From contig NBNI01000007.1 of assembly GCA_004379135.1 (NCBI GenBank), positions 731,501 through 795,500 of the forward strand: 64,000 nt of DNA, in the 5' to 3' direction. Source of the stretch: Acidimicrobiales bacterium mtb01 (GTDB taxonomy: Bacteria; Actinomycetota; Acidimicrobiia; Acidimicrobiales; Ilumatobacteraceae). A model generated the notes under the pieces. The model saw nothing but the letters and a program-made list of their open reading frames with translations, had not been told where the DNA came from and did not search any database. This document shows positions 23,434 to 36,400 of this stretch, piece by piece (the first letter of the stretch is position 1; the number at the start of each line of letters is the position of its first letter). The position numbers and the translations under genes were made by a program.

Positions 23434-24495
23434 GTGGCCCCGATCAATGTGGTCGTCCTCTTCGGTGGCCGTTCGGCCGAGCACGACGTGAGTTGCGTGA
23501 CGGCCGCGCACGTCCTGCGCGCGATCGATCGCTCCCGGTATTCGGTGACCGCGGTCGGAATCGATCGGGATGGGCAATGGCAACTGGCCGAGTCGGCGAT
23601 GCGCGCCCTCGAGGCCGGGCACGTTCCCGAACGGCTGGCCGCCGACGGGCTTCCGGTGTCGTCGGCTCCGGTGCTCCAGGCCGCCGCCGCCAGCGGGCGG
23701 GCGGTGATCCTGCCCCTTCTGCACGGACCGCTCGGCGAGGACGGAACCATCCAGGGGATCTGCGAACTCCTCGATCTCCCCTACGTGGGTTCGGGGGTGC
23801 TGGCCTCGGCGGTGGCCATGGACAAGGTGATGGCCAAGGACGTCCTCGCGCGTCACGGTGTTCCGCAACCGCGCTACGCCGGCCTGCACGTCGACGAGGT
23901 GTCGCCCTCGCGCCTCGATGCCATCGCGCGCGACCTCGGTTATCCGATGTTCGTCAAACCCGCGAACATGGGCTCGTCGATCGGCGTGAGCAAGGTGCGC
24001 GACCGCGACGAATTGTCGGCGGCGATCGCCTTCGCGTCGTCGTACGACGAGATGCTGATCGTCGAGGAAGGTGTGCCCGGACGCGAGATCGAGGTCGCGG
24101 TGCTCGGCAACCGCTCGCCGCGCGCCAGTGTTCCGGGCGAAATCGTTCCGGGCAACGAGTTCTACGACTACGACGACAAGTACGTCACCGACGGTGCGCA
24201 ATTGCTGGTGCCGGCTCCGCTCGACGCCGGTGCCGCGGCCGAGGTGCAGCAATTGGCCCTCGACATCTTTCGCATCCTGCGTTGCGACGGCCTGGCGCGC
24301 GTCGACTTCTTCTTCGACGAGGGCGGCCGCGGATTCCTGTGCAACGAGGTCAACACGATGCCCGGATTCACCCCGATCTCGATGTATCCGAAGTTGTGGC
24401 AGGCATCGGGCGTGCCATACGCCGAACTCATCGACCAGTTGATCGAGTTGGCCTTCGAGCGTCACGCCCGGCGCCGGCGCAACACCAGTCGTTGA
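23434..24495 (+). CDS. ddl: D-alanine--D-alanine ligase
   Basis: 353-residue ATP-grasp enzyme that makes the D-Ala-D-Ala dipeptide for peptidoglycan. N-terminal NVVVLFGGRSAEHDVSCVTA, HGPLGEDGTIQG near 97, VKPANMGSSIGVSK near 170 and the C-terminal CNEVNTMPGFTPISMYPKLW with the Mg-binding residues are all present. GTG start fixed by the -10 spacing and the position of the first beta strand. Stand-alone gene between divergent and convergent neighbours. No vancomycin-type D-Lac residue change can be judged by eye. Confidence 0.94.
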   Translation: MAPINVVVLFGGRSAEHDVSCVTAAHVLRAIDRSRYSVTAVGIDRDGQWQLAESAMRALEAGHVPERLAADGLPVSSAPVLQAAAASGRAVILPLLHGPLGEDGTIQGICELLDLPYVGSGVLASAVAMDKVMAKDVLARHGVPQPRYAGLHVDEVSPSRLDAIARDLGYPMFVKPANMGSSIGVSKVRDRDELSAAIAFASSYDEMLIVEEGVPGREIEVAVLGNRSPRASVPGEIVPGNEFYDYDDKYVTDGAQLLVPAPLDAGAAAEVQQLALDIFRILRCDGLARVDFFFDEGGRGFLCNEVNTMPGFTPISMYPKLWQASGVPYAELIDQLIELAFERHARRRRNTSR

Positions 24496-24502
24496 GGCAC
24501 CG

Positions 24503-25099
24503 TCACGGCGCGAGTGCGGCGCGTACGAACGTCACCAGTTCGTCGCGCAGACGGCGCAGACCCGCGATGTCGGCGTTCCAGCCCACCACGCGCAACGCCT
24601 CGGGTTCGGTCGCGATTCCGGTGACCGTGGCGTAGGCCAACGCGATCACGAGTGACGGATCGCCGCGGCGCAGGCGGCCCGCGCTCATCTCCATCTCCAT
24701 CCAACGCACGGCCCGGTCGACGAACGGCCGCAACGTGTCGGTGAAACGCTCCGATGCTTCGGCGGGGAGTCGGCTGATCTCGCGCACCAAGCCGAGCAAT
24801 GCCGGTCGCCGCACGGCCGGACGGAACACGGCCTTCACCACGGCTTCCAGGCGGTCGAGCGGGTCGTCGGGTGCGGTTCGAATGGCCGCTTCAACCACGA
24901 CCGCAAGATCGGCGGCCGTGCGGGCCAGGACCTGTTGGACCAGATCGTCCTTGGACGCGAACCAGTACAGGACCGTCTGCTTGGCCACGCCCACCTCGGC
25001 GGCGATCTGGTCGAGGCTCACGGCCTCGAAACCCCAGCGTCCGAAGAGGTCGGTGGCCCTCTCCCGGATGAGGTCGCGGGTTCCGGTTCGACGGGCCAC
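24503..25099 (-). CDS. TetR-family regulator of the acyl-reductase operon
   Basis: 198-residue TetR/AcrR repressor. The helix-turn-helix (about 8-58) reads ERATDLFGRWGFEAVSLDQI then VAKQTVLYWFASKDDLVQQ. The C-terminal ligand pocket is divergent. GTG start at 25099 with TAGACA 6 nt upstream. It is divergent from the fatty acyl reductase gene across a 68-bp gap that contains a perfect 8-bp-arm palindrome, so it very likely controls itself and the four-gene lipid operon, probably sensing an acyl-CoA or related lipid (inference). Confidence 0.88.
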   Translation of the reverse strand: MARRTGTRDLIRERATDLFGRWGFEAVSLDQIAAEVGVAKQTVLYWFASKDDLVQQVLARTAADLAVVVEAAIRTAPDDPLDRLEAVVKAVFRPAVRRPALLGLVREISRLPAEASERFTDTLRPFVDRAVRWMEMEMSAGRLRRGDPSLVIALAYATVTGIATEPEALRVVGWNADIAGLRRLRDELVTFVRAALAP

Positions 25100-25105
25100 G
25101 CCCGG

Positions 25106-25111
25106 TGTCTA
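25106..25111 (-). promoter_or_regulatory. -10 element of the TetR gene with operator half-site
   Basis: TAGACA on the minus strand, 6 nt before the GTG at 25099. It overlaps TCTACCAG (plus strand 25108-25115), a copy of one arm of the palindrome at 25130-25147, so repressor bound there would cover this promoter. Confidence 0.4.
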
Positions 25112-25129
25112 CCAGAAAATCCGGCTCTT

Positions 25130-25147
25130 CTCTACCATTTGGTAGAG
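25130..25147. promoter_or_regulatory. palindromic TetR operator
   Basis: CTCTACCA, two T, TGGTAGAG: perfect 8-bp arms around a 2-bp centre, the size and symmetry of TetR operators. It lies midway between the divergent GTG codons (25099 and 25168), over the expected -35 of the acyl-reductase promoter. Confidence 0.7.
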
Positions 25148-25155
25148 AACGGTGC

Positions 25156-25161
25156 TAGAAC
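25156..25161 (+). promoter_or_regulatory. -10 element, leaderless acyl-reductase operon
   Basis: TAGAAC exactly 6 nt before the GTG at 25168, 8 bp downstream of the palindromic operator. Confidence 0.4.
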
Positions 25162-25167
25162 CGTCCC

Positions 25168-27537
25168 GTGATCCCCTCCGCCCTGGCCGGCAAACGAATC
25201 GGCGTCACCGGAGCGACCGGCTTCGTGGGCACGGCGCTCGTCGAGCGTCTGCTGCGCGCGGTTCCCGATTGCACGCTCGTGCTGCTCGTTCGCGACGGCA
25301 AGCGCACCGCGGCCTCCGAACGCGTGCGACGCGAGATCATCAAGAACAACGCGTTCGACCGACTTCGCTCGGAATGGGGTGCCGACTTCGACGCACGCAT
25401 CGCCGCTCGGGTGAGCGTCGTGAGCGGAGACGTCGGAACCGACGGTCTCGGCCTGTCCCCCGACGATCGCCGCGCTTTCGCATCGTGCGACGTCATCATC
25501 CATTCAGCCGCCAGTGTCTCGTTCGACTCGCCGCTCGACAGCGCGATCGAGATCAACCTCCTCGGCCCCACTCGCATCGCCGCGTTGCTGAACGAGGAAG
25601 GCCCGGGTCCGTCGGGTCGACTCGCCCATCTCGTGGCCGTGTCCACGTGCTACGTGGCCGGAAACCGACGCGGCAACGCCCCGGAAGAACTCGTCAGCGC
25701 CGGGCCCTTCGACATCGGCCTGTCGTGGCGCAATGAGGTGGCAGCGGCGCGTCGTCTGCGCGGAGACACCGAGGCGGCCAGCCGCACGCCCGAACGACTC
25801 GCCGAATTCCGAGCCGACGCGCGTCGCGAACTCGGTGCCGCCGGTGCGCCGGCCCTGGCCGAGAAGACCGAGCAGTGCCGCGAGCGGTGGGTGAAGGATC
25901 AACTCGTCGCGGCCGGACGTTCGCGCGCCGCCAGCGTGGGATGGCCCGATGCGTACGCCTTCACGAAGGCGTTGGGTGAACAAGCACTGCACGAGACGAA
26001 GGGTGCGGTGCCGGTGAGCATCGTGCGCCCGTCGATCATCGAGTCGGCGCTGGCCGAACCGTTCCCGGGTTGGATCCGCGGCTTCCGCATGGCCGAGCCG
26101 GTGATCATTTCGTACGCGCGCGGTCTGCTGAAGGAGTTCCCGGGTGTTCCCGAAGGAACCATCGACGTCATCCCGGTCGACATCGTGGTCGCCGCGATCA
26201 TCGCCGTGGCCGCGCTCGGTCCCGAATCGGCACCCGCGATCACGCAAGTGGCATCGGGCTCCACCAACCCGTTGAAGTACCGCACGTTGGTCGACAACGT
26301 GCGCGATTGGTTCACCGAACATCCGATCTACGACTCGCACGGTCAGCCGATCGTGGTCCCCGACTGGAACTTCCCCGGGCGCGGTCGGGTGCAGAAGCAG
26401 TTGTCGCGCGCCAAGACCGCGGTCACGTGGGCCGAGCGCACGTTGCAGTCGCTCCCATTGCGCGGTGTGCAGGCGTCGTGGTCGGCTCGCCTCGAGGAGC
26501 GCCGCGGCGACATCGAGCGCGCGCTCGAATACGTCGAGCTCTACGGCCTCTACACCGAATGCGAGGCGATCTACCGGGTCGACAACCTGATGCGCATCAA
26601 CGACGACCTCGACGCGGCCGATCGAGCCGCGTTCAACCTCGACCCGCGTTCGGTCGACTGGCCGCTCTACATCTCGACGATCCACCTCCCCTCGGTGGTG
26701 CAGCACGCGAGAGTGAAGACGTCTCCCGGCAAGACCATGGTCGATCGCCGCGATCGACTGCGCAAGCAGGTGCTCGATCCGTCGCGTCAGGTCGCGGCGT
26801 TCGATCTGGAGAACACCCTGATCGCTTCCAACGTGGTCGAGTCGTACTCGTGGCTGGCCACGCGCCGCCTCAACACACCCGAGCGCATTCGCTACGTCGC
26901 CCGCACGTTGCGCGAGGCCCCCGGCCTGCTGTCGATGGACCGCAAGGACCGCGCCGATTTCCTCCGCTACTTCTACCGACGGTACGAGGACGCGCCGGTC
27001 GAGCAGATCGAGGCCGATGCCGCCGAATTGCTGTCGCAGTTGATCATGACGAAGTCGTTCCCGGCCGGCTTGCGCCGCGTTCGCGAGCACCGGGCCCTCG
27101 GACATCGCACCGTGCTCATCACCGGTGCCCTGAGTTTCGCGGTCGAGGGACTGCGTCCATTGTTCGACGAGATCGTCGCGGCCGACATGACCAAGCGTCC
27201 CGACGGCACGTACTCGGGCGAGTTGGCCGTGGTTCCGCCCACTGGCGAAACCCGCGCGCAGATCCTGGCCGACTATTGCCAGGCCGAAGGTTTCCGACTC
27301 GAGGAGTGCGTGGCCTACGCCGACTCCACGAGCGACTTGCCGCTGCTCGAAGCGGTCGGCTTCCCGGTGGCCGTCAATCCCGAGACTCGGCTGGCCGCCA
27401 TCGCGCGCAAACGCGGTTGGCTCGTCGAGAACTGGGAGAAGGCCGAAGGCGCACCTCGCCGACTGCTGCCCATCGGTCCGCTGGTTTCGGAGTCCGAGCA
27501 GAAGCGATTCTCCGTTCGCACGCGGAGGTCGTTCTGA
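25168..27537 (+). CDS. fatty acyl reductase-HAD fusion
   Basis: 789 residues. Residues 1-430 form a FAR-type extended SDR: NAD(P) motif GVTGATGFVG at 12-21, SAASVSFD near 110, the VAVSTCYVAG strand near 155, and catalytic Y263-x3-K267. FAR enzymes reduce acyl-CoA or acyl-ACP to aldehyde or alcohol. A linker leads to a HAD-IB phosphatase-like domain (about 540-770) with D546, an unusual glutamate at 548 where the DxDxT motif normally has Asp, KSFPAGLRR, TGALSF and ADSTSDLPLLEAVG. The reductase could make a fatty alcohol for a lipid; the role of the HAD part is unknown. GTG start. Its stop overlaps the next start by one base. Confidence 0.82.
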   Translation: MIPSALAGKRIGVTGATGFVGTALVERLLRAVPDCTLVLLVRDGKRTAASERVRREIIKNNAFDRLRSEWGADFDARIAARVSVVSGDVGTDGLGLSPDDRRAFASCDVIIHSAASVSFDSPLDSAIEINLLGPTRIAALLNEEGPGPSGRLAHLVAVSTCYVAGNRRGNAPEELVSAGPFDIGLSWRNEVAAARRLRGDTEAASRTPERLAEFRADARRELGAAGAPALAEKTEQCRERWVKDQLVAAGRSRAASVGWPDAYAFTKALGEQALHETKGAVPVSIVRPSIIESALAEPFPGWIRGFRMAEPVIISYARGLLKEFPGVPEGTIDVIPVDIVVAAIIAVAALGPESAPAITQVASGSTNPLKYRTLVDNVRDWFTEHPIYDSHGQPIVVPDWNFPGRGRVQKQLSRAKTAVTWAERTLQSLPLRGVQASWSARLEERRGDIERALEYVELYGLYTECEAIYRVDNLMRINDDLDAADRAAFNLDPRSVDWPLYISTIHLPSVVQHARVKTSPGKTMVDRRDRLRKQVLDPSRQVAAFDLENTLIASNVVESYSWLATRRLNTPERIRYVARTLREAPGLLSMDRKDRADFLRYFYRRYEDAPVEQIEADAAELLSQLIMTKSFPAGLRRVREHRALGHRTVLITGALSFAVEGLRPLFDEIVAADMTKRPDGTYSGELAVVPPTGETRAQILADYCQAEGFRLEECVAYADSTSDLPLLEAVGFPVAVNPETRLAAIARKRGWLVENWEKAEGAPRRLLPIGPLVSESEQKRFSVRTRRSF

Positions 27538-28748
27538 TGCGCGCACTCAAGATCTCGCGCAAGCCGGCGAAGTTCGCCGTCGCGCGTCTGATGAGCCCGA
27601 TCAGCGCGGCCGGAGCGGCGAAGTACGGGCCGCTCGATCTGGTGAACGAGAACGCGCCGGCCCTGCCCTCCGGCGACGGTTGGCACCGCATCACACCGCG
27701 ACTCACCGGGATCTGCGGATCGGATCTGTCGCTCGTCGAGGGTCACGCGTCCACGTACTTCGACGACTGGGTGTCGTTCCCCTTCGTGCCCGGCCACGAG
27801 GTCGTCGCCGATTGCGACGACGGACGACGCGTCGTGCTCGAACCCGTGCTCGGTCACGCCGCGCGCGGGCTGCCGCTTCCGTTCGACGGTGCGGCTCCCG
27901 GCGATGGCGACGACTACGCGCACCTCGTGGGCGGCTGCCTCGAACCGGGCATCCAGACCGGGTTCTGCACATCGACCGGCGGCGGTTGGTCGACCGAACT
28001 GATCGCGCACGAGAGCCAGTTGCACGCCGTTCCCGACGACATGAGCGACGAGTGCGCCGTTCTGGTCGAACCGGCCGCCGGCGGCATCCACGCCGCTCTC
28101 GCCACCTGGCCGGCCGTGAAGGCCGCGCTCGAACGCGGCGAAACTCCGGTGGTCGCCGTGCTCGGCGCCGGGACCATGGGGTTGTGCGCCGTGGCCGGAC
28201 TGCGCGCGTTCGTACCCGGTGCGCGCATCGTGGTCGGAGCCCGTTACCCGCATCAGCAGGCGTTGGCGCGTGCACTCGGAGCCGACGTCGCCGTGCCAAG
28301 TGACGAACTGTCGCGCGCGGTTCGCCGCGAGGTGGGGTGCCACGTCGTCGGCGATCATCTGTCGGGCGGATCGCACGCCACGATCGACGCGGTCGGCGAT
28401 TCGTCGTCGATCGCGGCCAGCATCAAGTTCACTCGCCCACGTGGTCGCGTGGTGCTGCTCGGTATGCCGGCCGAGGTCACCGTCGACCTGACGGGGCTGT
28501 GGCACCGCGAAACCGCCCTCGTCGGCGCGTACACGTACGGCACCGAGACCCTCGCCGACGGATCGCGTCGCCACACGTTCGATCTGGCCATCGAACTCGC
28601 GCGCACCGCGCGGTTCGATCGATTGCTGTCGGCCACCTATCGCCTCGATGAGTACGAGGATGCGATCGCCCACGCCGCCGCCGCCGGACGGCGCGGTGCC
28701 GTGAAGATCGCGTTCGACCTTCGTCCCCCACACCAGGAGACCCGCTGA
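27537..28748 (+). CDS. medium-chain (zinc-type) alcohol dehydrogenase
   Basis: 403-residue MDR family member. The catalytic-zinc region GICGSDLSLVEG near 63 and PGHEVV near 85 are present. The lobe that in relatives holds four structural-zinc cysteines (about 105-135) has only one cysteine, so that site appears lost. The Rossmann motif VLGAGTMGLCAVAG lies near 205 and YTYGTE near 335. It is coupled to the acyl reductase by a one-base overlap, which suggests it handles the aldehyde/alcohol product or a related diol or ketone; NAD versus NADP cannot be told with confidence. Confidence 0.82.
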   Translation: MRALKISRKPAKFAVARLMSPISAAGAAKYGPLDLVNENAPALPSGDGWHRITPRLTGICGSDLSLVEGHASTYFDDWVSFPFVPGHEVVADCDDGRRVVLEPVLGHAARGLPLPFDGAAPGDGDDYAHLVGGCLEPGIQTGFCTSTGGGWSTELIAHESQLHAVPDDMSDECAVLVEPAAGGIHAALATWPAVKAALERGETPVVAVLGAGTMGLCAVAGLRAFVPGARIVVGARYPHQQALARALGADVAVPSDELSRAVRREVGCHVVGDHLSGGSHATIDAVGDSSSIAASIKFTRPRGRVVLLGMPAEVTVDLTGLWHRETALVGAYTYGTETLADGSRRHTFDLAIELARTARFDRLLSATYRLDEYEDAIAHAAAAGRRGAVKIAFDLRPPHQETR

Positions 28749-30337
28749 TGCCCCGTCCCGGATTCGTTCTCGACGTCGACCGCTCCACTCCGCCGATCCT
28801 GTTCTGGCGCGGCGAGAACTTCTCGCTCGAGAAGTTGCCGGCCGGACGCAGCCGCGTCATCTATCCGCCCGAGCCGCTGCCCGCGATCGACGACATCGAC
28901 GGCGCGATCCGCCACGCGTTGCTCAACCCGATCGATCAGGATCCGCTGCCGTCGCAACTGTTCCCCGGTATGCGCCTCACGATCGCCTTCGACGACGTGA
29001 GCCTCCCGCTGCCCAAGATGCAGCGACCCGACATCCGCCAGCGTGTCATCGAGGCCGTCCTCGACCTGGCCGCCGAAGCCGGGGTCGACGACGTCCACAT
29101 CATCGCCGCATTGGCGCTCCACCGCCGCATGACCGAGGCCGAGTTGCGCCACGCCGTGGGCGACCGCGTGTACGACGCATTCGCCCCGCGCGGCTACCTG
29201 TATCAGCACGACGCCGAGGACCCCGACAAGCTGTCGTTCCTCGGAACCACGCCGCACGGCGAGGAGGTCGAGATCAACAAGCGGGCCGCCGAGAGCGACC
29301 TCCTGGTGTACGTGAACATCAATCTCGTGGCGATGGACGGCGGCTGGAAGAGCACGGCCACCGGGCTGTCGTCGTACAAGTCGCTGCGCCATCACCACAA
29401 TCCCGAGACCATGACCCACTCGCGCAGTTTCATGGATCAGCATCGCAGCGAGTTGCACAAGAGCAACTGGCGCATGGGCAAGGTCCTGCTCGACAGCGGC
29501 GTCAAGGTGTTCCAGATCGAGACCACGCTCAACACCGACACGTTCCCGAAGCCCTTCGACTTCCTGTCGAAGCGCGAATGGGAATGGACCGCGCGCGACC
29601 GCATGACCTTCCTCGCCACCACCAAGGCGCTCAATCGCACACCCCATCGCCTGGCCCGCGACATCTTCCACTCGATCGAGGCGCCGCATCAGATGACGAG
29701 CGTGCAGGCCGGCGAAGTGGAGGCGGTCCACCGCATCACCACCGAGCACGTGTACAAGCAGCAACTCGTCGAGGTGAAGGGCCAGACCGACATCCTCACG
29801 ATGGGCATCCCGTACATCAGCCCGTACAACGTGCACTCGATCCTCAACCCCATTCTCGTGCAGGTCATGGCGATGGGCTACTACTTCAACATGTACCGCG
29901 GCATGCCGCTGGTGCGCGAGGGCGGCGTCATCATCATGACCCACCCGTGCCGACCCGAGTTCAACCCGGTGCACCATCCGAGCTACATCGACTTCTTCGA
30001 ACAGGTGCTGGCCGACACCACCGACCCGCACGTGATGTCGCAGAAGTGGGAGAAGCAGTACGCCGAGGACGAGTGGTATAAGCACCTCTACCGCACCGGC
30101 TACGCGTATCACGGCGTGCACCCGTTCTACATGTGGTACTGGGGCACGCACGGCATGAAGCACTGCAGCCGCGTCATCGTGGTGGGCGGCGATCCGAAGA
30201 CGGTCCGCCGCCTCGGTTTCGTGCCGGCCAGCACCATGGACGACGCGCTCGAGATCGCGAGCGACGTGGTGGGCCGCGCGCCGACCATCACGCATCTGCA
30301 CACGCCTCCGCTGATGGTCGCGGACGTGAGCCTCTGA
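28748..30337 (+). CDS. LarA-like (lactate racemase-type) protein
   Basis: 529 residues, longer than lactate racemase LarA (about 425). The N-terminal region matches LarA in AFDDVSLPLPKMQRPDIRQR near 79 and IIAALALHRRMTEAEL, where H125 fits the first catalytic His of LarA. The next block has GGWKSTATG (K201, where LarA K184 binds the nickel-pincer cofactor) and H215-H217 near LarA H200. The PH dipeptide that carries LarA H174 appears replaced by hydrophobic residues. LarA-like proteins racemise or epimerise 2-hydroxy acids. No larB, larC or larE cofactor genes are in the window. Overlaps both neighbours by one base. Confidence 0.7.
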   Translation: MPRPGFVLDVDRSTPPILFWRGENFSLEKLPAGRSRVIYPPEPLPAIDDIDGAIRHALLNPIDQDPLPSQLFPGMRLTIAFDDVSLPLPKMQRPDIRQRVIEAVLDLAAEAGVDDVHIIAALALHRRMTEAELRHAVGDRVYDAFAPRGYLYQHDAEDPDKLSFLGTTPHGEEVEINKRAAESDLLVYVNINLVAMDGGWKSTATGLSSYKSLRHHHNPETMTHSRSFMDQHRSELHKSNWRMGKVLLDSGVKVFQIETTLNTDTFPKPFDFLSKREWEWTARDRMTFLATTKALNRTPHRLARDIFHSIEAPHQMTSVQAGEVEAVHRITTEHVYKQQLVEVKGQTDILTMGIPYISPYNVHSILNPILVQVMAMGYYFNMYRGMPLVREGGVIIMTHPCRPEFNPVHHPSYIDFFEQVLADTTDPHVMSQKWEKQYAEDEWYKHLYRTGYAYHGVHPFYMWYWGTHGMKHCSRVIVVGGDPKTVRRLGFVPASTMDDALEIASDVVGRAPTITHLHTPPLMVADVSL

Positions 30338-31359
30338 TGGCACGCGACGACGCTCCGTGGCGGCCGAGCAATCTGGCCAAGGCGGCGCGCGCCGGTGACG
30401 TGGTCGAGCGCCTCGCGACTCCGTTCGTGAAACGCGTGAAGAAGCGCGGATTCCCGTACACCGCTCCCACTCGGCCGCGTGGAGTCGAGGTTCCAGCCGA
30501 CGAGCCGTCCCTGGGCGCCGATTACGACACGAAGTGGGCGCGTCGCGCTCCGGCGCGTGCGGCCCGTCGCGTCATCATCAGCGGTCCGGTCCGACTCCTG
30601 GTGCGCGGTGTGGCCAGCCCGAGCGTGCACGGAACCGATCGTCTGTCCGATCTCGCTCGCCTCGACGACGCTCCCCCGCTGATCTTCACGCCGAATCACC
30701 ACTCGCATCTCGACACCGCGATCATGGCGTCGGTCGTGCCCGAGCCGTGGCGTTCGAAACTCGTGGTGGCGGCGGCGGCCGATTACTTCTTCGACAAGCG
30801 TTGGAAGGCCACGCTGGCCGCGTTGTCGCTCAACGCGATCCCCATCGACCGAGAAGTCACCGGTCGCAAGTCGTCCGAGATGATCAAGGCGCTCGTGGAG
30901 GACGGCTGGAGTCTCGTGATATACCCCGAAGGCGGACGGTCCCCCGATGGTTGGGGTCAGGAGTTCAAGGGCGGCGCGGCGTACTTGTCGAGCCGTACCG
31001 GGGCCGCCGTGGTGCCCGTGTTCATCGACGGCACCGGATCGATCTTCGGCAAGGGCATGAAGCGTCCGCGACCGGGAACCACCAAGGTGGTGTTCGGACG
31101 TCCGATGTCGGCGCTAGACGGCGAGAACACTCGTCGCTTCGCGGCACGGATCGAGAAGGCCGTCACCGCGTTGGGCGACGAGTCGCTCACCGACTTCTGG
31201 GGTGCGCGCCAACGTGCGGCGCGCAACGACAACCCGACGCTCACGGGCCCCGATTACACGGGTTGGCGTCGGCAGTGGGCGCTGTCGGAGCGGCGCGCGC
31301 TCGGCACGGCCGGACAACGACGTCGCCAGAAGCGCCGCTGGCCCGACCTCGGCTCCTGA
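30337..31359 (+). CDS. PlsC-type acyltransferase
   Basis: 340-residue glycerolipid acyltransferase. The catalytic NHxxxxD motif is NHHSHLD near residue 127 and the glycerol-phosphate-binding block YPEGGRSPDG is near 196. The N-terminus (1-80) is basic and has no clear signal, and the C-terminus is arginine-rich (RRRQKRRW), suggesting peripheral membrane association. It ends the operon begun at 25168. A reductase, a dehydrogenase, a 2-hydroxy-acid-type epimerase and an acyltransferase in one unit suggest synthesis of an unusual acyl or alkyl lipid; that is inference. Confidence 0.85.
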   Translation: MARDDAPWRPSNLAKAARAGDVVERLATPFVKRVKKRGFPYTAPTRPRGVEVPADEPSLGADYDTKWARRAPARAARRVIISGPVRLLVRGVASPSVHGTDRLSDLARLDDAPPLIFTPNHHSHLDTAIMASVVPEPWRSKLVVAAAADYFFDKRWKATLAALSLNAIPIDREVTGRKSSEMIKALVEDGWSLVIYPEGGRSPDGWGQEFKGGAAYLSSRTGAAVVPVFIDGTGSIFGKGMKRPRPGTTKVVFGRPMSALDGENTRRFAARIEKAVTALGDESLTDFWGARQRAARNDNPTLTGPDYTGWRRQWALSERRALGTAGQRRRQKRRWPDLGS

Positions 31360-31380: not shown

Positions 31381-31425
31381 TCTGGTGACTGAAAGTCACC
31401 TTCCAGGTGACTTTCAGTCACCAGA
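31381..31425. repeat. 45-bp nested palindrome between operons
   Basis: Perfect 20-bp inverted arms (31381-31400 and 31406-31425) with a TTCCA loop. Each arm is itself a hairpin: GGTGACT, 3 nt, AGTCACC (31384-31400 and 31406-31422). Thus GGTGACT recurs with 22-bp spacing. It lies between the convergent acyltransferase (stop 31359) and LysM (stop 31429) genes with no T-run, so it could be a bidirectional terminator or a dispersed repeat element. Confidence 0.85.
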
Positions 31426-32019: not shown

Positions 32020-33471
32020 TCAGACCATGGGGCGATCAGTGGGCAGCACCGGCGCCGGCAGCGTCGTGTCACCCATCAGATACGCGTCCACACCCGCCGC
32101 GCACGCGCGTCCCTCGGCGATGGCCCAGACGATGAGACTCTGGCCACGTCCCATGTCGCCGGCCACGAACACTCCGGGAACGCTGCTCATGTACGCATCG
32201 TTGCGCTTCACGTTGCCCCGCTCGTCGAGGGCCACACCGAGCTCGTCGAGCCAGCCACCCTTCTCCGGTCCGACGAAGCCCATGGCGAGGAACACGAAGT
32301 CGGCCGGGATCTCGCGATCGGATCCCTCCACCTTCACGAATCGTCCGTCGCGCATCTCGACCTCGTGCAGAAGAAGAGCGCGCACGCGTCCGTTGCCATC
32401 GTCGACGAAGCGCTCGGTGTTGACGCTGTAGACGCGATCACCACCCTCCTCGTGAGCCGACGACACGCGGTACACCATCGCGTACTGCGGCCACGGGTTG
32501 GCGCCGGCGCGCTCCTCGGGCGGTCGGGGCATGATCTCGATCTGGGTCACCGAGGCCGCACCTTGGCGATGCGCGGTACCGAGGCAATCGGCGCCGGTGT
32601 CTCCGCCACCGATGATCACCACGTGCTTGCCGTTCACGTCGATGGGCGATGCACCGAGGTCGCCCTCCTGCACCTTGTTCGCGAACGGCAGGTACTCCAT
32701 CGCCTGATGGATGCCCTGTAGTTCGCGACCCGGAACCGGCAGGTCGCGCCACGCGGTCGCGCCGCAGGCGAGAACGACCGCGTCGTAAGTGGCGGTCAGC
32801 ACACCGATGTCGACGTTCTGCCCGACGATCGCGTTGGTCCGGAACTCGGTCCCTTCGGCTTCCATCTGCGCCAGACGACGATCGAGATGCCGCTTTTCCA
32901 TCTTGAATTCGGGGATGCCGTAACGCAGCAACCCTCCGATGCGATCGGCGCGTTCGAGGACCACCACCTCGTGACCGGCCCGCGTGAGCTGCTGAGCGAC
33001 CGCCAGGCCGGCCGGACCCGATCCGATGACCGCGACCCGCTTGCCGGTCTTCACGCTCGGCATCTGCGGGACGACCCAGCCTTCATCCCACGCGCGGTCG
33101 ATGATCTCGACCTCCACCTGCTTGATGGCCACCGGGTCGGCGTTGATGCCGAGAACGCAAGCCGACTCGCACGGTGCCGGGCACAGCCGTCCGGTGAACT
33201 CGGGGAAGTTGTTGGTGGCATGCAGACGATCGATCGCGTCCTGCCAGTGCTCGCGATACACGAGATCGTTCCAGTCGGGGATGAGATTCCCGAGCGGGCA
33301 GCCGTTGTTGCAGAACGGGATGCCGCAATCCATGCACCGCCCGGCCTGCCGCTTCAGGGCGTCGCGGTCGAACGGTTCGTACACCTCTTTCCAGTCGCGC
33401 AGTCGCACGGGCACCGGGCGACGCGACGGCGCCTCCCGGTTCCACTTCAGGAATCCGGTCGTCTCACCCAT
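32020..33471 (-). CDS. gltD: glutamate synthase small subunit
   Basis: 483-residue NADPH-oxidising flavoprotein subunit of glutamate synthase. The N-terminal cysteine-rich segment ([18 protein letters not shown] near 46, then [12 protein letters not shown] near 97) binds two [4Fe-4S] clusters. FAD and NADPH motifs follow: [17 protein letters not shown] near 146 and [13 protein letters not shown] near 290. The C-terminal [18 protein letters not shown] is typical. The start overlaps the gltB stop by 8 bp, so the two subunits are coupled. Confidence 0.95.
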
Positions 33472-36400
33472 TGGTGCTCTCCATCACTCGCTGCAACGTC
33501 TGCTCCTCGGAGAGGCCCTGGCGGCGCGACTCCTCCATCACCGTGAGCACGCGCTTGAAGTCGCGCGGCATCACCTTGCGGAAGTGCGACACCTCGGCGT
33601 CCCACGCACCGAGGATCCGGCCGCCGACCGCGCTTCCGGTCTCCTCGGTGTGCGCGGTGATCGTGGTGCGCAGGAAGTCGAGGTCGGTCGCGTCGAGCGG
33701 TTCGAGTTCGACCAACTCGTAGTTCACCTTCGTCGCGAACACTTCATTCGGGTCGTACACGTACGCGATGCCACCCGACATGCCCGCCGCGAAGTTGCGG
33801 CCGGTCGCACCGAGCACGACCACTCGCCCACCGGTCATGTATTCGCACGCGTGGTCGCCCACTCCCTCCACCACGGCGGTGGCCCCGGAGTTGCGCACGC
33901 AGAATCGCTCGCCGACGAGACCGCGCAGGTAGATCTCGCCGCCGGTCGCGCCGTAGCCGATCACGTTTCCGGCGATGACGTTGTCCTCGGCCGCGAACAC
34001 CGCATCACGATCGGGACGCACGACCAGACGACCGCCCGACAGTCCCTTGCCGAGATAGTCGTTGGAGTCGCCTTCGAGACGCATCGTGATTCCGCGCGGC
34101 ACGAACGCGCCGAAACTCTGACCGGCCGAACCGCGGAAGTCGATCTGGATGGTGTCGTCGGGCAGACCGGCGCCCTTCCATCGACTGGTCACGGCGTGGC
34201 CGAGCATCGTGCCCACGGTGCGATTCACGTTGCGGATCGGAACCGCGAAACGGACGGCCTCACCCTTGTCGATCGCGTTCTTCGACCGAGCGATGAGCTC
34301 GTTGTCGAGCGCTTCGGCCAAGCCGTGATCCTGGGCGACCGTCTGGCGACTCGCCTGACCGTACGGATTGCGGGCCGGAGCGAGGATCGGGGCCAGGTCG
34401 AGACCCTTGGCCTTCCAGTGCGCCACCGCCTTCACGGTGTCGAGCATGTCGCTATGACCCACCATCTCGGCGATCGAGCGGAAACCGAGCTGCGCCATGA
34501 TCTCGCGCACCTCCTCGGCCACGAACTCGAAGAAGTTCACGACGAACTCGGGCTTGCCCGAGAAACGCTTGCGCAATTCGGGATTCTGCGTGGCCACACC
34601 CACCGGGCAGGTGTCGAGGTGGCAGACGCGCATCATGATGCAGCCACTCACCACCAGCGGTGCGGTCGCGAATCCGAATTCCTCGGCTCCGAGCAACGCG
34701 GCGATCACGACGTCGCGGCCGGTCTTCATCTGACCGTCGGCCTGGACGACGATGCGGTCGCGCAGGCCGTTGAGCATGAGCGTCTGCTGCGTCTCGGCGA
34801 GACCGAGTTCCCACGGTGCGCCGGCGTGCTTGAGCGAAGTGAGCGGGGATGCACCGGTGCCACCGTCGTGACCGGAGATGAGCACCACGTCGGCCTTGGC
34901 CTTGCTCACACCGGCCGCCACGGTTCCGACTCCGACTTCGGCCACCAGCTTCACGTGCACGCGCGCCGACGGATTCGAGTTCTTCAGGTCGTGGATGAGC
35001 TGCTTGAGATCCTCGATCGAATAGATGTCGTGGTGCGGAGGCGGGCTGATGAGGCCGACACCCGGCGTGGAGTGACGCGTCTTGGCCACCCACGGGTACA
35101 CCTTGTGACCGGGCAACTGGCCGCCTTCACCCGGCTTGGCGCCTTGCGCCATCTTGATCTGCAGATCGTCGGCGTTCACGAGGTACTCGCTCGTGACTCC
35201 GAAGCGACCCGAGGCGACCTGCTTGATGGCCGAGCGACGCTGCGGATCGTAGAGACGTTCCGGGTCCTCGCCGCCTTCGCCGGTGTTGCTCTTGCCGCCG
35301 ATCGAGTTCATGGCGATCGCCAGGGTCTCGTGCGCCTCGGCCGAGATGGAGCCGTAGCTCATCGCGCCGGTGGAGAAACGCTTCACGATCTCCGACACCG
35401 GCTCGACCTCGTCGATCGGAACCGACGGCCGCACACCATCCTTCAGGTCGAACAATCCGCGCAGCGTCGCGAGGTGGCGCGACTGGTCGTCGACGGCCTT
35501 GGTGTACTGCTTGAAGATGTCGTAGCGCTTGGCCCGGGTGGCGTGCTGCAGGCGGTACACGGTCTCGGGATTGAAGAGGTGGAACTCTCCCTCGCGGCGC
35601 CACTGGTACTCGCCGCCGAGTTCGAGTTTGCGGTGCGCGCGGTGCTCGGGGTTCTTCGGATGGGCGGTGGCGTGGCGAGCCGACACCTCGGCCGCGATCT
35701 CGTCGAGCCCGATGCCGCCCAGGCGACTCACGGTTCCGGTGAAGTATTCGTCGACGAGTTCGGAACCCAGGCCGATGGCTTCAAAGATCTGCGCACCGGT
35801 GTACGACGCGACCGTGCTCACGCCCATCTTCGACATGATCTTGAGGACACCCTTGCCCGAGGCCTTGATGTACTTCTTCACGGCCGCCGGGGCATCGACG
35901 CCGCCGAGTCCGTGCAGGTCTTCGCGGATCATGTCCTCGATCGACTCGAACGCGAGGTAGGGGTTCACGGCACCGGCGCCGAATCCGATGAGCAGCGCCA
36001 TGTGGTGCACTTCGCGCGCGTCGCCGCACTCGACGACCAGACCGGCCTGCGTGCGCTTCTTCTCGCGCACGAGGTGATGGTGGACCGCCGCCGTGAGCAA
36101 CAGCGAGGGAATCGGCGCCAGAGCCTCGTCGCTGTTGCGATCGGACAGGACGATCACCCGTGCGCCAGCCTCGATGGCCGATGACACCTCCGAGCGGATC
36201 TGGTCGAGCGCCGACTTCAGCGCCGCACCGCCGCCCGACACGCGATACAGACCCGACACCACGTGCGCGTGCAGCTCGGGGAACGAGCCTTCGTCGTCGG
36301 CGTGGATGATGCGGGCCAATTCGTCGTTGTCGATGATCGGGAACGGAAGCACGAGCTGGCGGCAGCTTCCCGGACCGGGTAGGAGCAGGTTCGCCTCGGG

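What the first reader, a model, noticed from the sequence alone, without database searches (positions are those of the whole stretch)
24503..31359. TetR-controlled acyl-reductase/ADH/LarA-like/PlsC operon: candidate undescribed lipid pathway
Seen: four genes (25168-31359) each overlapping the next by one base, headed by a palindromic operator and a divergent TetR gene. Known: FAR proteins reduce activated acyl chains, MDR enzymes interconvert alcohols and carbonyls, LarA proteins racemise or epimerise 2-hydroxy acids, and PlsC acylates glycerol phosphates. Inference: together they could build an unusual acyl, hydroxy-acyl or alkyl lipid, with stereochemistry set by the LarA-like enzyme. I know of no described pathway with this set.
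Basis: partly seen in the sequence, partly recalled or inferred. Interest (0 to 1): 0.72.

Follow-up and report, generated by a model that had tools for sequence, protein, structure and literature searches.

The report
Nickel-cofactor lipid operon of actinobacteria
A self-contained, separately switched set of genes that seems to build an unusual fat-like membrane molecule includes a relative of a rare nickel-cofactor enzyme whose job is unknown, so that job can now be tested.

Summary
In detail: a divergent TetR gene, a palindromic operator, and four genes (FAR-HAD, MDR, LarA-like, PlsC) each overlapping the next by one base. In 296 phylum genomes FAR-HAD and the LarA-like protein occur together in 69, singly in 6 and 2, neither in 219. 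Gene order is kept across many families. In Rubrobacteraceae PlsY takes PlsC's place, the only PlsY in 5 of 6 genomes. Genes for the nickel-pincer nucleotide (NPN) join the operon in four loci. The operator occurs once per genome in 12 of 18 genomes, always between TetR and FAR. The LarA-like protein belongs to a named family without known substrate, LarAH14/15/16. It keeps the cofactor residues but lacks the second catalytic histidine (Asn192), so 'racemase that sets stereochemistry' is doubtful. Best reading: a fatty-alcohol-dependent glycerolipid pathway, most likely alkyl-ether-type without AGPS, with LarAH14 making a non-inverting hydride-transfer step. Product and step are inferred. Searches found no print linking NPN enzymes to lipid synthesis; the 2020 survey's supplement was unreadable here.

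The parts
24503..25099 (-). TetR-family repressor, divergent from the operon
   Evidence: Pfam TetR_N 3e-11; divergent TetR conserved next to FAR in 63 loci
25128..25149 (.). TetR operator, 22-bp palindrome (10-nt arms, 2-nt centre); an extra half-site lies at about 25108-25114
   Evidence: with up to one mismatch a single copy in G000 and in each of the 11 other genomes with a site, each between TetR and FAR
25168..27537 (+). FAR-HAD fusion: fatty-acyl reductase domain (about 1-515) and HAD-IB phosphatase-like domain (about 540-755)
   Evidence: Pfam/NCBIfam; PDB 7eoz fatty acyl-CoA reductase 1.5e-62 over residues 4-514; Tyr263/Lys267 and HAD Asp546, Asp719, Asp723 invariant in 101 of 101 aligned sequences
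27537..28748 (+). MDR zinc dehydrogenase of the polyol/ketose type
   Evidence: best PDB matches ketose reductase 1.4e-15 and sorbitol dehydrogenase 4.7e-15; catalytic-Zn ligands Cys60, His87, Glu88, Glu178 in 108 of 108; structural-Zn Cys set missing here, present in 88 of 108
28748..30337 (+). LarAH14/15/16-family NPN enzyme with a single catalytic His
   Evidence: NF052592 903.8 bits, cut-off 740; AlphaFold model pLDDT 89.6, closest chain 9q3k Z 39.1, rmsd 2.4 over 454 residues; residues
30337..31359 (+). PlsC/AGPAT-type acyltransferase
   Evidence: Pfam Acyltransferase 4.8e-17; PDB 5kym PlsC 7.3e-8; HX4D His121/Asp126 and Glu198/Gly199/Arg201 in 99 of 99
31381..31425 (.). perfect 21-nt inverted repeat after the operon, between convergent genes; possible terminator or other element (no T-run seen)

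Best explanation
This is a dedicated, TetR-repressed lipid-biosynthesis operon of Acidimicrobiales, with relatives in Rubrobacteraceae and several other families of the phylum. Shown: the gene set, its order, its co-occurrence, intact catalytic residues, an operator found only at this operon (as far as near-perfect sites tell), NPN genes in the genome and in some lineages in the operon. Inferred: the FAR domain reduces a long-chain acyl thioester to a fatty alcohol; the acyltransferase (PlsC, or PlsY in Rubrobacteraceae) acylates a glycerol-phosphate backbone; HAD removes a phosphate; MDR, where present, interconverts a C2 hydroxyl and ketone of the backbone. LarAH14 does a hydride-transfer step on a hydroxy-lipid or backbone intermediate with its tethered NPN. 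As it has only one of the two catalytic histidines, it more likely takes and returns hydride without inverting the centre. The set maps onto the animal ether-lipid enzymes (acyltransferase, FAR1, AGPS, alkyl-DHAP reductase) with LarAH14 in the AGPS place, so the most likely product is an alkyl-ether (fatty-alcohol-containing) glycerolipid made without AGPS. Layers, my estimates: dedicated fatty-alcohol lipid operon about 0.8; glycerolipid with an alkyl chain about 0.4; LarAH14 itself forming the ether bond about 0.15.
For: Co-occurrence 69 both / 6 FAR-HAD only / 2 LarAH14 only / 219 neither of 296. Of 63 LarAH14 loci, one per genome, 61 have MDR upstream on the same strand, 56 FAR upstream, 37 PlsC directly downstream, and 15, all of family f24, have PlsY upstream; most of the FAR misses lie at contig or stretch ends. 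f24 = Rubrobacteraceae: G076 is 100% identical over 7001 bases to a Rubrobacter indicoceani plasmid. One f24 PlsY is over its NCBIfam cut-off, and the operon's PlsY is the only one in 5 of 6 f24 genomes tested, so the operon touches the first step of glycerophospholipid synthesis. A PAP2 + lipid-kinase (DAGK/YegS) fusion lies beside PlsC in two f51 loci. LarE, LarB and LarC lie downstream of PlsC in three f22 loci, LarB and LarC also in one f70 locus. Own genome: LarB and LarE over their cut-offs, LarC. LarC in 62 of 71 LarAH14 genomes against 130 of 225 others. All four enzymes keep their main catalytic residues. One operator per genome, between TetR and FAR. The elb ether-lipid operon of Myxococcus also combines FAR-like, AGPAT-like and HAD parts and works largely without AGPS (PMC9131029, passages). 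Loss of the second His was predicted to allow hydride transfer 'to an adjacent site' (PMC7583248, passages).
Against: No lipid analysis was available. Nine of 71 LarAH14 genomes show no LarC, among them G252 (98% complete), G284 (96%) and G106 (95%). The own genome does hold an AGPS-like gene (C1:153923-155500), so ether lipids there could use AGPS. FAR families also serve wax-ester synthesis (recalled). The phyletic link is partly shared ancestry; the Fisher p ignores this. Three FAR-HAD genomes (G040, G064, G259) show no LarAH14 over cut-off and no fragment that I counted as one. MDR is missing from the operon in 9 of the 70 named-collection loci with a FAR hit and in G252. The HAD second acid is Glu in 82 of 101, so phosphatase activity is not certain. 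The AGPS-place role of LarAH14 has no direct evidence.
Confidence: 0.4

Rival explanations
1. 2-Hydroxyacyl / 1,2-diol lipid: LarAH14 acts on a 2-hydroxy fatty acyl group, FAR reduces the 2-hydroxyacyl thioester to a long-chain 1,2-diol, and PlsC acylates it, as in the diol lipids of Thermomicrobium, where the diol replaces glycerol.
For: LarA relatives act on 2-hydroxy acids (PMC7583248 section 5 and passages, PMC11770544 passages). Diol lipids exist in Thermomicrobium (PMC3426160, passages). Relatives of the LarA protein in family f28 (about 39% identity, no FAR beside them) lie near a family III CoA-transferase and an AMP-binding protein (clusters; one of each assigned by Pfam).
Against: No hydroxylase or source of 2-hydroxyacyl is in the operon. 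The Arg75 equivalent, which binds the substrate carboxylate in LarA of Isosphaera (PMC12611868), is mostly a hydrophobic residue here, and the second His is Asn. The PlsY in Rubrobacteraceae fits glycerol-3-phosphate better than a diol. The f28 CoA-transferase passes no NCBIfam cut-off.
Confidence: 0.2
2. AGPS-coupled ether lipid: the operon only supplies fatty alcohol and acyl-glycerol phosphate, AGPS elsewhere in the genome forms the ether, and LarAH14 does an unrelated trimming or salvage step.
For: G000 has a protein whose best PDB match is alkyl-DHAP synthase (2uuu 1.3e-50, against D-lactate dehydrogenase 2.1e-38), beside GlpD- and GlpK-like genes.
Against: Strong AGPS-like proteins (E < 1e-60) occur in 21 of 71 LarAH14 genomes against 44 of 225 others, p 0.10. 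Of the 26 f24 genomes listed only G173 has one. Operon-less relatives G145, G166, G210 and G230 do have one. NCBIfam puts the G000 protein nearest GlcD, below cut-off.
Confidence: 0.12
3. Wax ester or other neutral fatty-alcohol ester: FAR makes a fatty alcohol and the PlsC-type protein esterifies it; LarAH14 and MDR handle a hydroxy-acid moiety of the ester.
For: FAR plus an acyltransferase is a general logic for fatty-alcohol esters (recalled, not from a call).
Against: PlsY and the lipid kinase/phosphatase found in other lineages point to glycerol-phosphate lipids. The PlsC keeps HX4D and EGxR motifs of glycerolipid acyltransferases (motif names recalled).
Confidence: 0.13
4. LarAH14 is an ordinary 2-hydroxy-acid racemase or epimerase of a small metabolite and shares the operon only for historical reasons.
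For: LarA fold over almost the whole chain and membership in a LarA-homologue family.
Against: Near-complete co-occurrence with FAR-HAD. Second catalytic His absent. The LarAH14 of Frankia was inactive on all seven tested racemisation/epimerisation activities (PMC7583248 Table 1).
Confidence: 0.15

Closest known systems
LarA homologue group LarAH14/15/16 (NCBIfam NF052592) and the Asn-substituted LarA subfamily of 9q2u/9q3j/9q3k
   Same: Family score over the curated cut-off; same fold, Z 39.1 to 9q3k; cofactor Lys, Ni-ligand His, one catalytic His, and Asn in place of the second His.
   Different: The solved members are reported with carbohydrate genes (PMC12611868); here the setting is lipid synthesis. 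Arg75 of LarA (Lys76 in the Streptococcus protein) is Leu86 here. No substrate is known for either in what I read.
elb operon (ElbA-ElbE) of Myxococcus xanthus
   Same: FAR-like and AGPAT-like domains plus a HAD protein in one ether-lipid operon that works largely without AGPS (PMC9131029, passages).
   Different: ElbD also holds acyl-CoA synthetase and ACP domains, which none of the four proteins here shows; no LarA-like protein or MDR is named in the elb operon in the passages read.
Animal ether-lipid enzymes (GNPAT, FAR1, AGPS, alkyl-DHAP reductase)
   Same: Acyltransferase, fatty-alcohol-forming reductase and a backbone C2 oxidoreductase (AGPS, FAR1, GNPAT named; alkyl-DHAP reductase recalled).
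   Different: No AGPS in the operon and no significant co-occurrence with AGPS; LarAH14 and HAD are extra.
Ger/PlsA bacterial ether-lipid enzymes
   Same: Bacterial alkyl-ether formation without AGPS (PMC11150832, PMC11868695, passages).
   Different: Ger is a single protein of about 159 kDa that reduces the ester in place; none of the four operon proteins is of that size. I did not search genomes for Ger.

Membership tests
LarAH14/15/16 (NF052592) | score over the curated cut-off | tested here: met
   903.8 bits against 740
LarA superfamily, NPN-binding | covalent-Lys (LarA K184) and Ni-ligand His (H200) | tested here: met
   Lys201 and His217 in 137 of 137 grouped FAR-context sequences (some are the same DNA held twice); register from the alignment to 9q2u and the text of PMC12611868
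LarA-type 2-hydroxy-acid racemase | two catalytic His (H108, H174) | tested here: not met
   His125 present (136 of 137, one gap), second position is Asn192 in 137 of 137
LarA-type 2-hydroxy-acid racemase | Arg75 equivalent that binds carboxylate and cofactor phosphate | tested here: not met
   Leu86; Leu or Ile in relatives, Cys in 6 of 20 Rubrobacteraceae, 2 gaps
NPN-dependent enzyme | larB, larC and larE in the genome | tested here: met
   for G000; over the sample only LarC was tested: 62 of 71 LarAH14 genomes, 9 without
NPN-dependent enzyme | NPN bound to the protein | not testable with these tools
   needs protein and mass spectrometry
Fatty acyl-CoA reductase (FAR) | Rossmann GxTGxTGF motif and YxxxK catalytic pair, FAR C-domain | tested here: met
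   Y263/K267 101 of 101; NAD_binding_4 over cut-off, 'Sterile' domain only at 28.1 bits, under its cut-off of 35.4; 7eoz over 4-514; motif names recalled
HAD-IB phosphatase | DxDxT motif I and late DxxxD | tested here: inconclusive
   first Asp and late Asp pair 101 of 101; second acid Glu in 82, Asp in 19; TIGR01490 95.6 bits, just under its cut-off of 98.3, TIGR01488 51 bits, over its cut-off of 45
PlsC/AGPAT acyltransferase | HX4D and EGxR motifs | tested here: met
   99 of 99
AGPS-dependent ether-lipid pathway | AGPS co-occurs with the operon | tested here: not met
   21 of 71 against 44 of 225, p 0.10
elb operon | ACS and ACP domains with FAR and AGPAT | tested here: not met
   no AMP-binding or ACP domain in any of the four operon proteins
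Alkyl-ether lipid pathway (any) | ether lipids in the organism | not testable with these tools
   no ether-lipid data for these organisms found

The most novel reading that the evidence does not exclude
LarAH14 is a nickel-pincer-nucleotide enzyme that makes the alkyl-ether bond of membrane glycerolipids. It transiently takes hydride from C2 of an acyl-glycerol phosphate, which makes the neighbouring acyl group exchangeable for the fatty alcohol supplied by FAR, and gives the hydride back to the same face: an AGPS- and Ger-independent way to ether lipids, and a lipid role for NPN.
Probability: 0.15. Interest if true: 0.92.

Novelty: new variant of a known kind. Interest (0 to 1): 0.68.

Why it matters
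A family of NPN proteins has been named but has no known substrate in what I read, and its tested Frankia member was inactive on all seven activities tried. This operon gives the family a tight, repeatable genetic setting: a fatty-alcohol-forming reductase and a glycerolipid acyltransferase. If right, NPN chemistry extends from hydroxy-acid isomerisation to membrane-lipid synthesis. It would also mean that some actinobacteria hold a lipid pathway that the usual marker genes (AGPS, Ger, ElbD) would not detect.

Tried and rejected
AGPS coupling: an AGPS-like gene in G000 looked promising, but it does not significantly co-occur with the operon; demoted. Strand-blind alignment failed and was redone. 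My first gene caller missed the MDR gene and was changed. The plasmid collection gave only distant LarA matches, none covering 80% of the query, but one Rubrobacter plasmid served to name family f24. Literature on ether or diol lipids in Rubrobacter and Acidimicrobiia gave nothing on such lipids in these organisms (with all four terms required, and 43, 49, 79, with three of six; open-licence library only); one passage gives branched fatty acids for Rubrobacter xylanophilus (PMC6461809). PMC11150832 was opened for its one listed 'Rubrobacter' count; the whole-word search found none in its main text. A broad search of nickel-pincer with lipid words (12,722 papers, 12 listed) says little. Foldseek and VIA-align gave only LarA relatives as strong matches. 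LarE/B/C in the operon are seen only in families f22 and f70, so I do not claim this as general; in the f70 locus L159 a LarE-cluster ORF was called on the other strand and tblastn did not find LarE on the operon strand there. Counts mix named and unnamed loci, so a few sequences are counted twice; one search used only called genes over a length limit. In one search the 137 FAR-context sequences were grouped by locus number, not re-tested one by one (L152 has no FAR beside its LarA; some short contigs do not reach FAR). If truncated LarAH14 fragments are counted as members, co-occurrence becomes 72 both, 3 FAR-HAD only, 4 LarAH14 only, 217 neither. The AGPS threshold E < 1e-60 was my choice after seeing the list. 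Not run: a second structure job, a search for Ger or ElbD in genomes, trees.
Full report
WHAT IS THERE. Five genes and an operator lie at the stated coordinates. TetR (24503-25099, minus) faces FAR-HAD (25168-27537), MDR (27537-28748), LarA-like (28748-30337) and PlsC (30337-31359), all plus; each junction is TGATG, a one-base overlap. The genome is 2.56 Mb in 7 contigs, 97.7% complete. Its family is most likely Ilumatobacteraceae: a same-family genome (G156) has a LarAH14 contig of the same length (85,620) as a record named Ilumatobacteraceae, with the same identities to the window genes.

WHAT THE PROTEINS ARE. FAR-HAD: NAD_binding_4 (200 bits) and HAD (83 bits); best solved relative 7eoz, a fatty acyl-CoA reductase, over residues 4-514. 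The FAR catalytic Tyr and Lys are invariant in 101 aligned sequences; the HAD nucleophile and late Asp pair too, the second acid being Glu in 82 and Asp in 19. MDR: nearest solved relatives are ketose reductase and sorbitol dehydrogenase, with all catalytic-zinc ligands invariant in 108 sequences; the structural-zinc cysteines are missing in 20, this one included. PlsC: motifs intact in 99 of 99. LarA-like: 903.8 bits to NF052592, 'NPN-dependent hydroxyacid isomerase, LarAH14/15/16 family', cut-off 740. Catalytic roles of these residues are recalled, except for LarA.

THE LARA-LIKE PROTEIN. An AlphaFold model (pLDDT 89.6) matches 9q3k, the Streptococcus single-histidine LarA, best (Z 39.1, rmsd 2.4, 454 residues), then 9q3j (35.4) and the lactate racemases (31.1 and below). 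From the alignment, the text of PMC12611868 (parts 1-3 of 5 read), the residues are: D83 (D72 of LarA), L86 (R75), H125 (H108), N192 (H174), K201 (K184), H217 (H200). So cofactor attachment and nickel binding are kept, one catalytic His is kept, the second is Asn, and the Arg that holds carboxylate and cofactor phosphate is mostly hydrophobic. The 2020 family survey (PMC7583248, section 5 and passages) found the Frankia LarAH14 inactive in seven assays. It said that a LarAH lacking one His may use one enantiomer and transfer hydride to an adjacent site, and it left group 16 out of its analysis because catalytic and NPN residues were not conserved. The 2025 paper says groups 14 and 15 lack the second His. 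The JBC 2024 'LarAH15' of Phytophthora is a gluconate epimerase of another branch (PMC11770544, passages), so that number is not the same thing.

In 296 genomes drawn over the phylum, NF052592 passes its cut-off in 71 and FAR-HAD (E <= 1e-60) is found in 75. Both: 69; FAR-HAD only: G040, G064, G095, G141, G259, G287; LarAH14 only: G149, G216; neither: 219. Three of the six FAR-only genomes (G095, G141, G287) hold what look like LarAH14 fragments below cut-off; counting fragments gives 72, 3, 4 and 217. The Fisher p (1.4e-57) takes no account of relatedness. In 63 LarAH14 loci, one per genome, MDR is upstream on the same strand in 61, FAR in 56, PlsC directly downstream in 37. Of the seven without FAR, six have short room upstream or a stretch that I cut short, and G065 (L152) has LarA away from FAR. 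LarA proteins of 22-40% identity (L177-L193, 17 loci, some from genomes that also have LarAH14) show no FAR, MDR or PlsC beside them, apart from one opposite-strand HAD hit in L180. In 9 of the 70 named-collection loci with a FAR hit, and in G252, no MDR was found; in all of these but L112 FAR-HAD is followed directly by LarA. So the core is FAR-HAD, LarAH14 and an acyltransferase.

WHAT OTHER LINEAGES ADD. (a) In family f24 no PlsC was found in the operon, and PlsY sits just upstream of FAR-HAD in 15 of 20 f24 loci; in the other five the stretch shows neither FAR nor an acyltransferase. The PlsY of L145 is over its cut-off (TIGR00023, 185.5 bits, cut-off 137.2). Genome G076 of f24 is 100% identical over 7001 bases, at the same plasmid coordinates, to Rubrobacter indicoceani, so f24 is Rubrobacteraceae. 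In G011, G053, G076, G195 and G237 the operon's PlsY is the only one; G041 has three; G000 and G134 have one and G031 and G113 three, away from the operon; eight genomes of other families have none (G080, G049, G022, G051, G226, G092, G140, G289). Two unrelated acyltransferases in the same setting are good evidence that acylation of a glycerol-phosphate-like acceptor belongs to the pathway. (b) LarE, LarB and LarC follow PlsC in L058, L059 and L147 (family f22), LarB and LarC in L159 (f70) (Pfam assignments for L147). (c) A PAP2 + DAGK/YegS fusion adjoins PlsC in L057 and L172 (f51). (d) G000 has LarB and LarC side by side and LarE. LarC occurs in 62 of 71 LarAH14 genomes against 130 of 225 others, p 3e-6; the nine without are G084, G106, G160, G163, G181, G213, G252, G270, G284. 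Six of these are drafts of 81-92% completeness, but G252, G284 and G106 are 95-98%, which speaks somewhat against strict NPN dependence.

REGULATION. The 22-bp palindrome at 25128-25149 has 10-nt arms (2 of 2000 shuffles reach this). The core TACC-N4-GGTA is between TetR and FAR in 62 of 63 loci. Searched with up to one mismatch in 18 genomes, TCTACCANNTGGTAGA occurs exactly once in each of 12 and in none of 6; all 12 lie between TetR and FAR. In 10 of these 12 the site is on the contig that holds LarA. In G156 the gene is split over two contigs (FAR-HAD residues 2-330 and 330-787), and in G263 the site is beside a full-length FAR-HAD on another contig, while a partial FAR-HAD adjoins LarA, so a second copy or an assembly overlap is possible there. 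The reversed-pattern control gave 0-2 sites per genome, so the number of sites alone is weak; their position is what counts. The repressor thus seems to serve this operon alone, as far as near-perfect sites tell. Of the six genomes without a site, G145 lacks the operon; G102, G134 and G274 have the divergent TetR with a less perfect site; G284 shows no TetR; in G220 the stretch does not reach FAR.

MECHANISM. Fatty-alcohol formation, backbone acylation, phosphate removal and C2 redox are what the families do; their order here is inference. The same functions make up the animal ether-lipid route, and FAR + AGPAT + HAD recur in the myxobacterial elb operon, which works largely without AGPS (PMC9131029, passages). 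AGPS itself was tested as the missing partner. G000 has an AGPS-like protein beside glycerol-metabolism genes, but AGPS-like proteins (E < 1e-60) are in 21 of 71 operon genomes and 44 of 225 others, p 0.10, and in only one of the 26 Rubrobacteraceae genomes listed. So either the product is not an ether, or the ether is made otherwise. The bold form is that LarAH14 makes it, by transient C2 oxidation with hydride held on NPN. This would explain one His (no inversion needed), a pocket without the carboxylate-binding Arg, and why MDR can be absent. It has no direct evidence.

NOVELTY. The parts are known families; LarAH14/15/16 is named but without substrate in what I read. In the open-licence library, nickel-pincer with lipid gave four papers, none about lipid synthesis by an NPN enzyme as far as titles and abstract starts tell (one of them, PMC11796402, was opened for passages); lactate racemase with ether lipid gave none. 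The neighbour table of the 2020 survey was not readable, so adjacency may already be listed there without interpretation. I call it a new variant of a known kind (fatty-alcohol lipid operon), with a categorically new reading not excluded.

Noticed in passing
G000 C1:153923-155500 (L204:1465-3042 -): AGPS-like FAD protein beside GlpD-like and GlpK-like genes; nearest solved relatives are alkyl-DHAP synthases, but NCBIfam puts it nearest GlcD below cut-off.
   Followed up: partly
window 31381-31425: Perfect 21-nt inverted repeat with 3-nt loop whose arms are themselves palindromic (two copies of GGTGACTNNNAGTCACC, none elsewhere in the window), between convergent PlsC and LysM genes.
   Followed up: partly
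L178, L179, L181, L184 (family f28): LarA relatives of about 39% identity, without FAR nearby, lie near a family III CoA-transferase and an AMP-binding protein: a second unexplained LarA setting that hints at acyl-CoA chemistry.
   Followed up: partly
G252 and G284: Nearly complete genomes with LarAH14 and FAR-HAD but no LarC match; either assembly gaps or a LarAH14 that works without home-made NPN.
   Followed up: no
G263 C31:657-2972 and C51:42194-43144: Two FAR-HAD matches, one full-length with TetR and operator, one partial at a contig end beside LarA: a second copy or an assembly overlap.
   Followed up: no
L076, L129, L089: Records titled Bifidobacterium breve (two) and Acidobacteria (one) carry the operon at 72-79% LarA identity to the window; the labels may be wrong.
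   Followed up: no
window 23434-24495 and 32020-36000: Neighbours Ddl and GltD keep their places beside the operon in many Acidimicrobiales loci, although they look like housekeeping genes.
   Followed up: no
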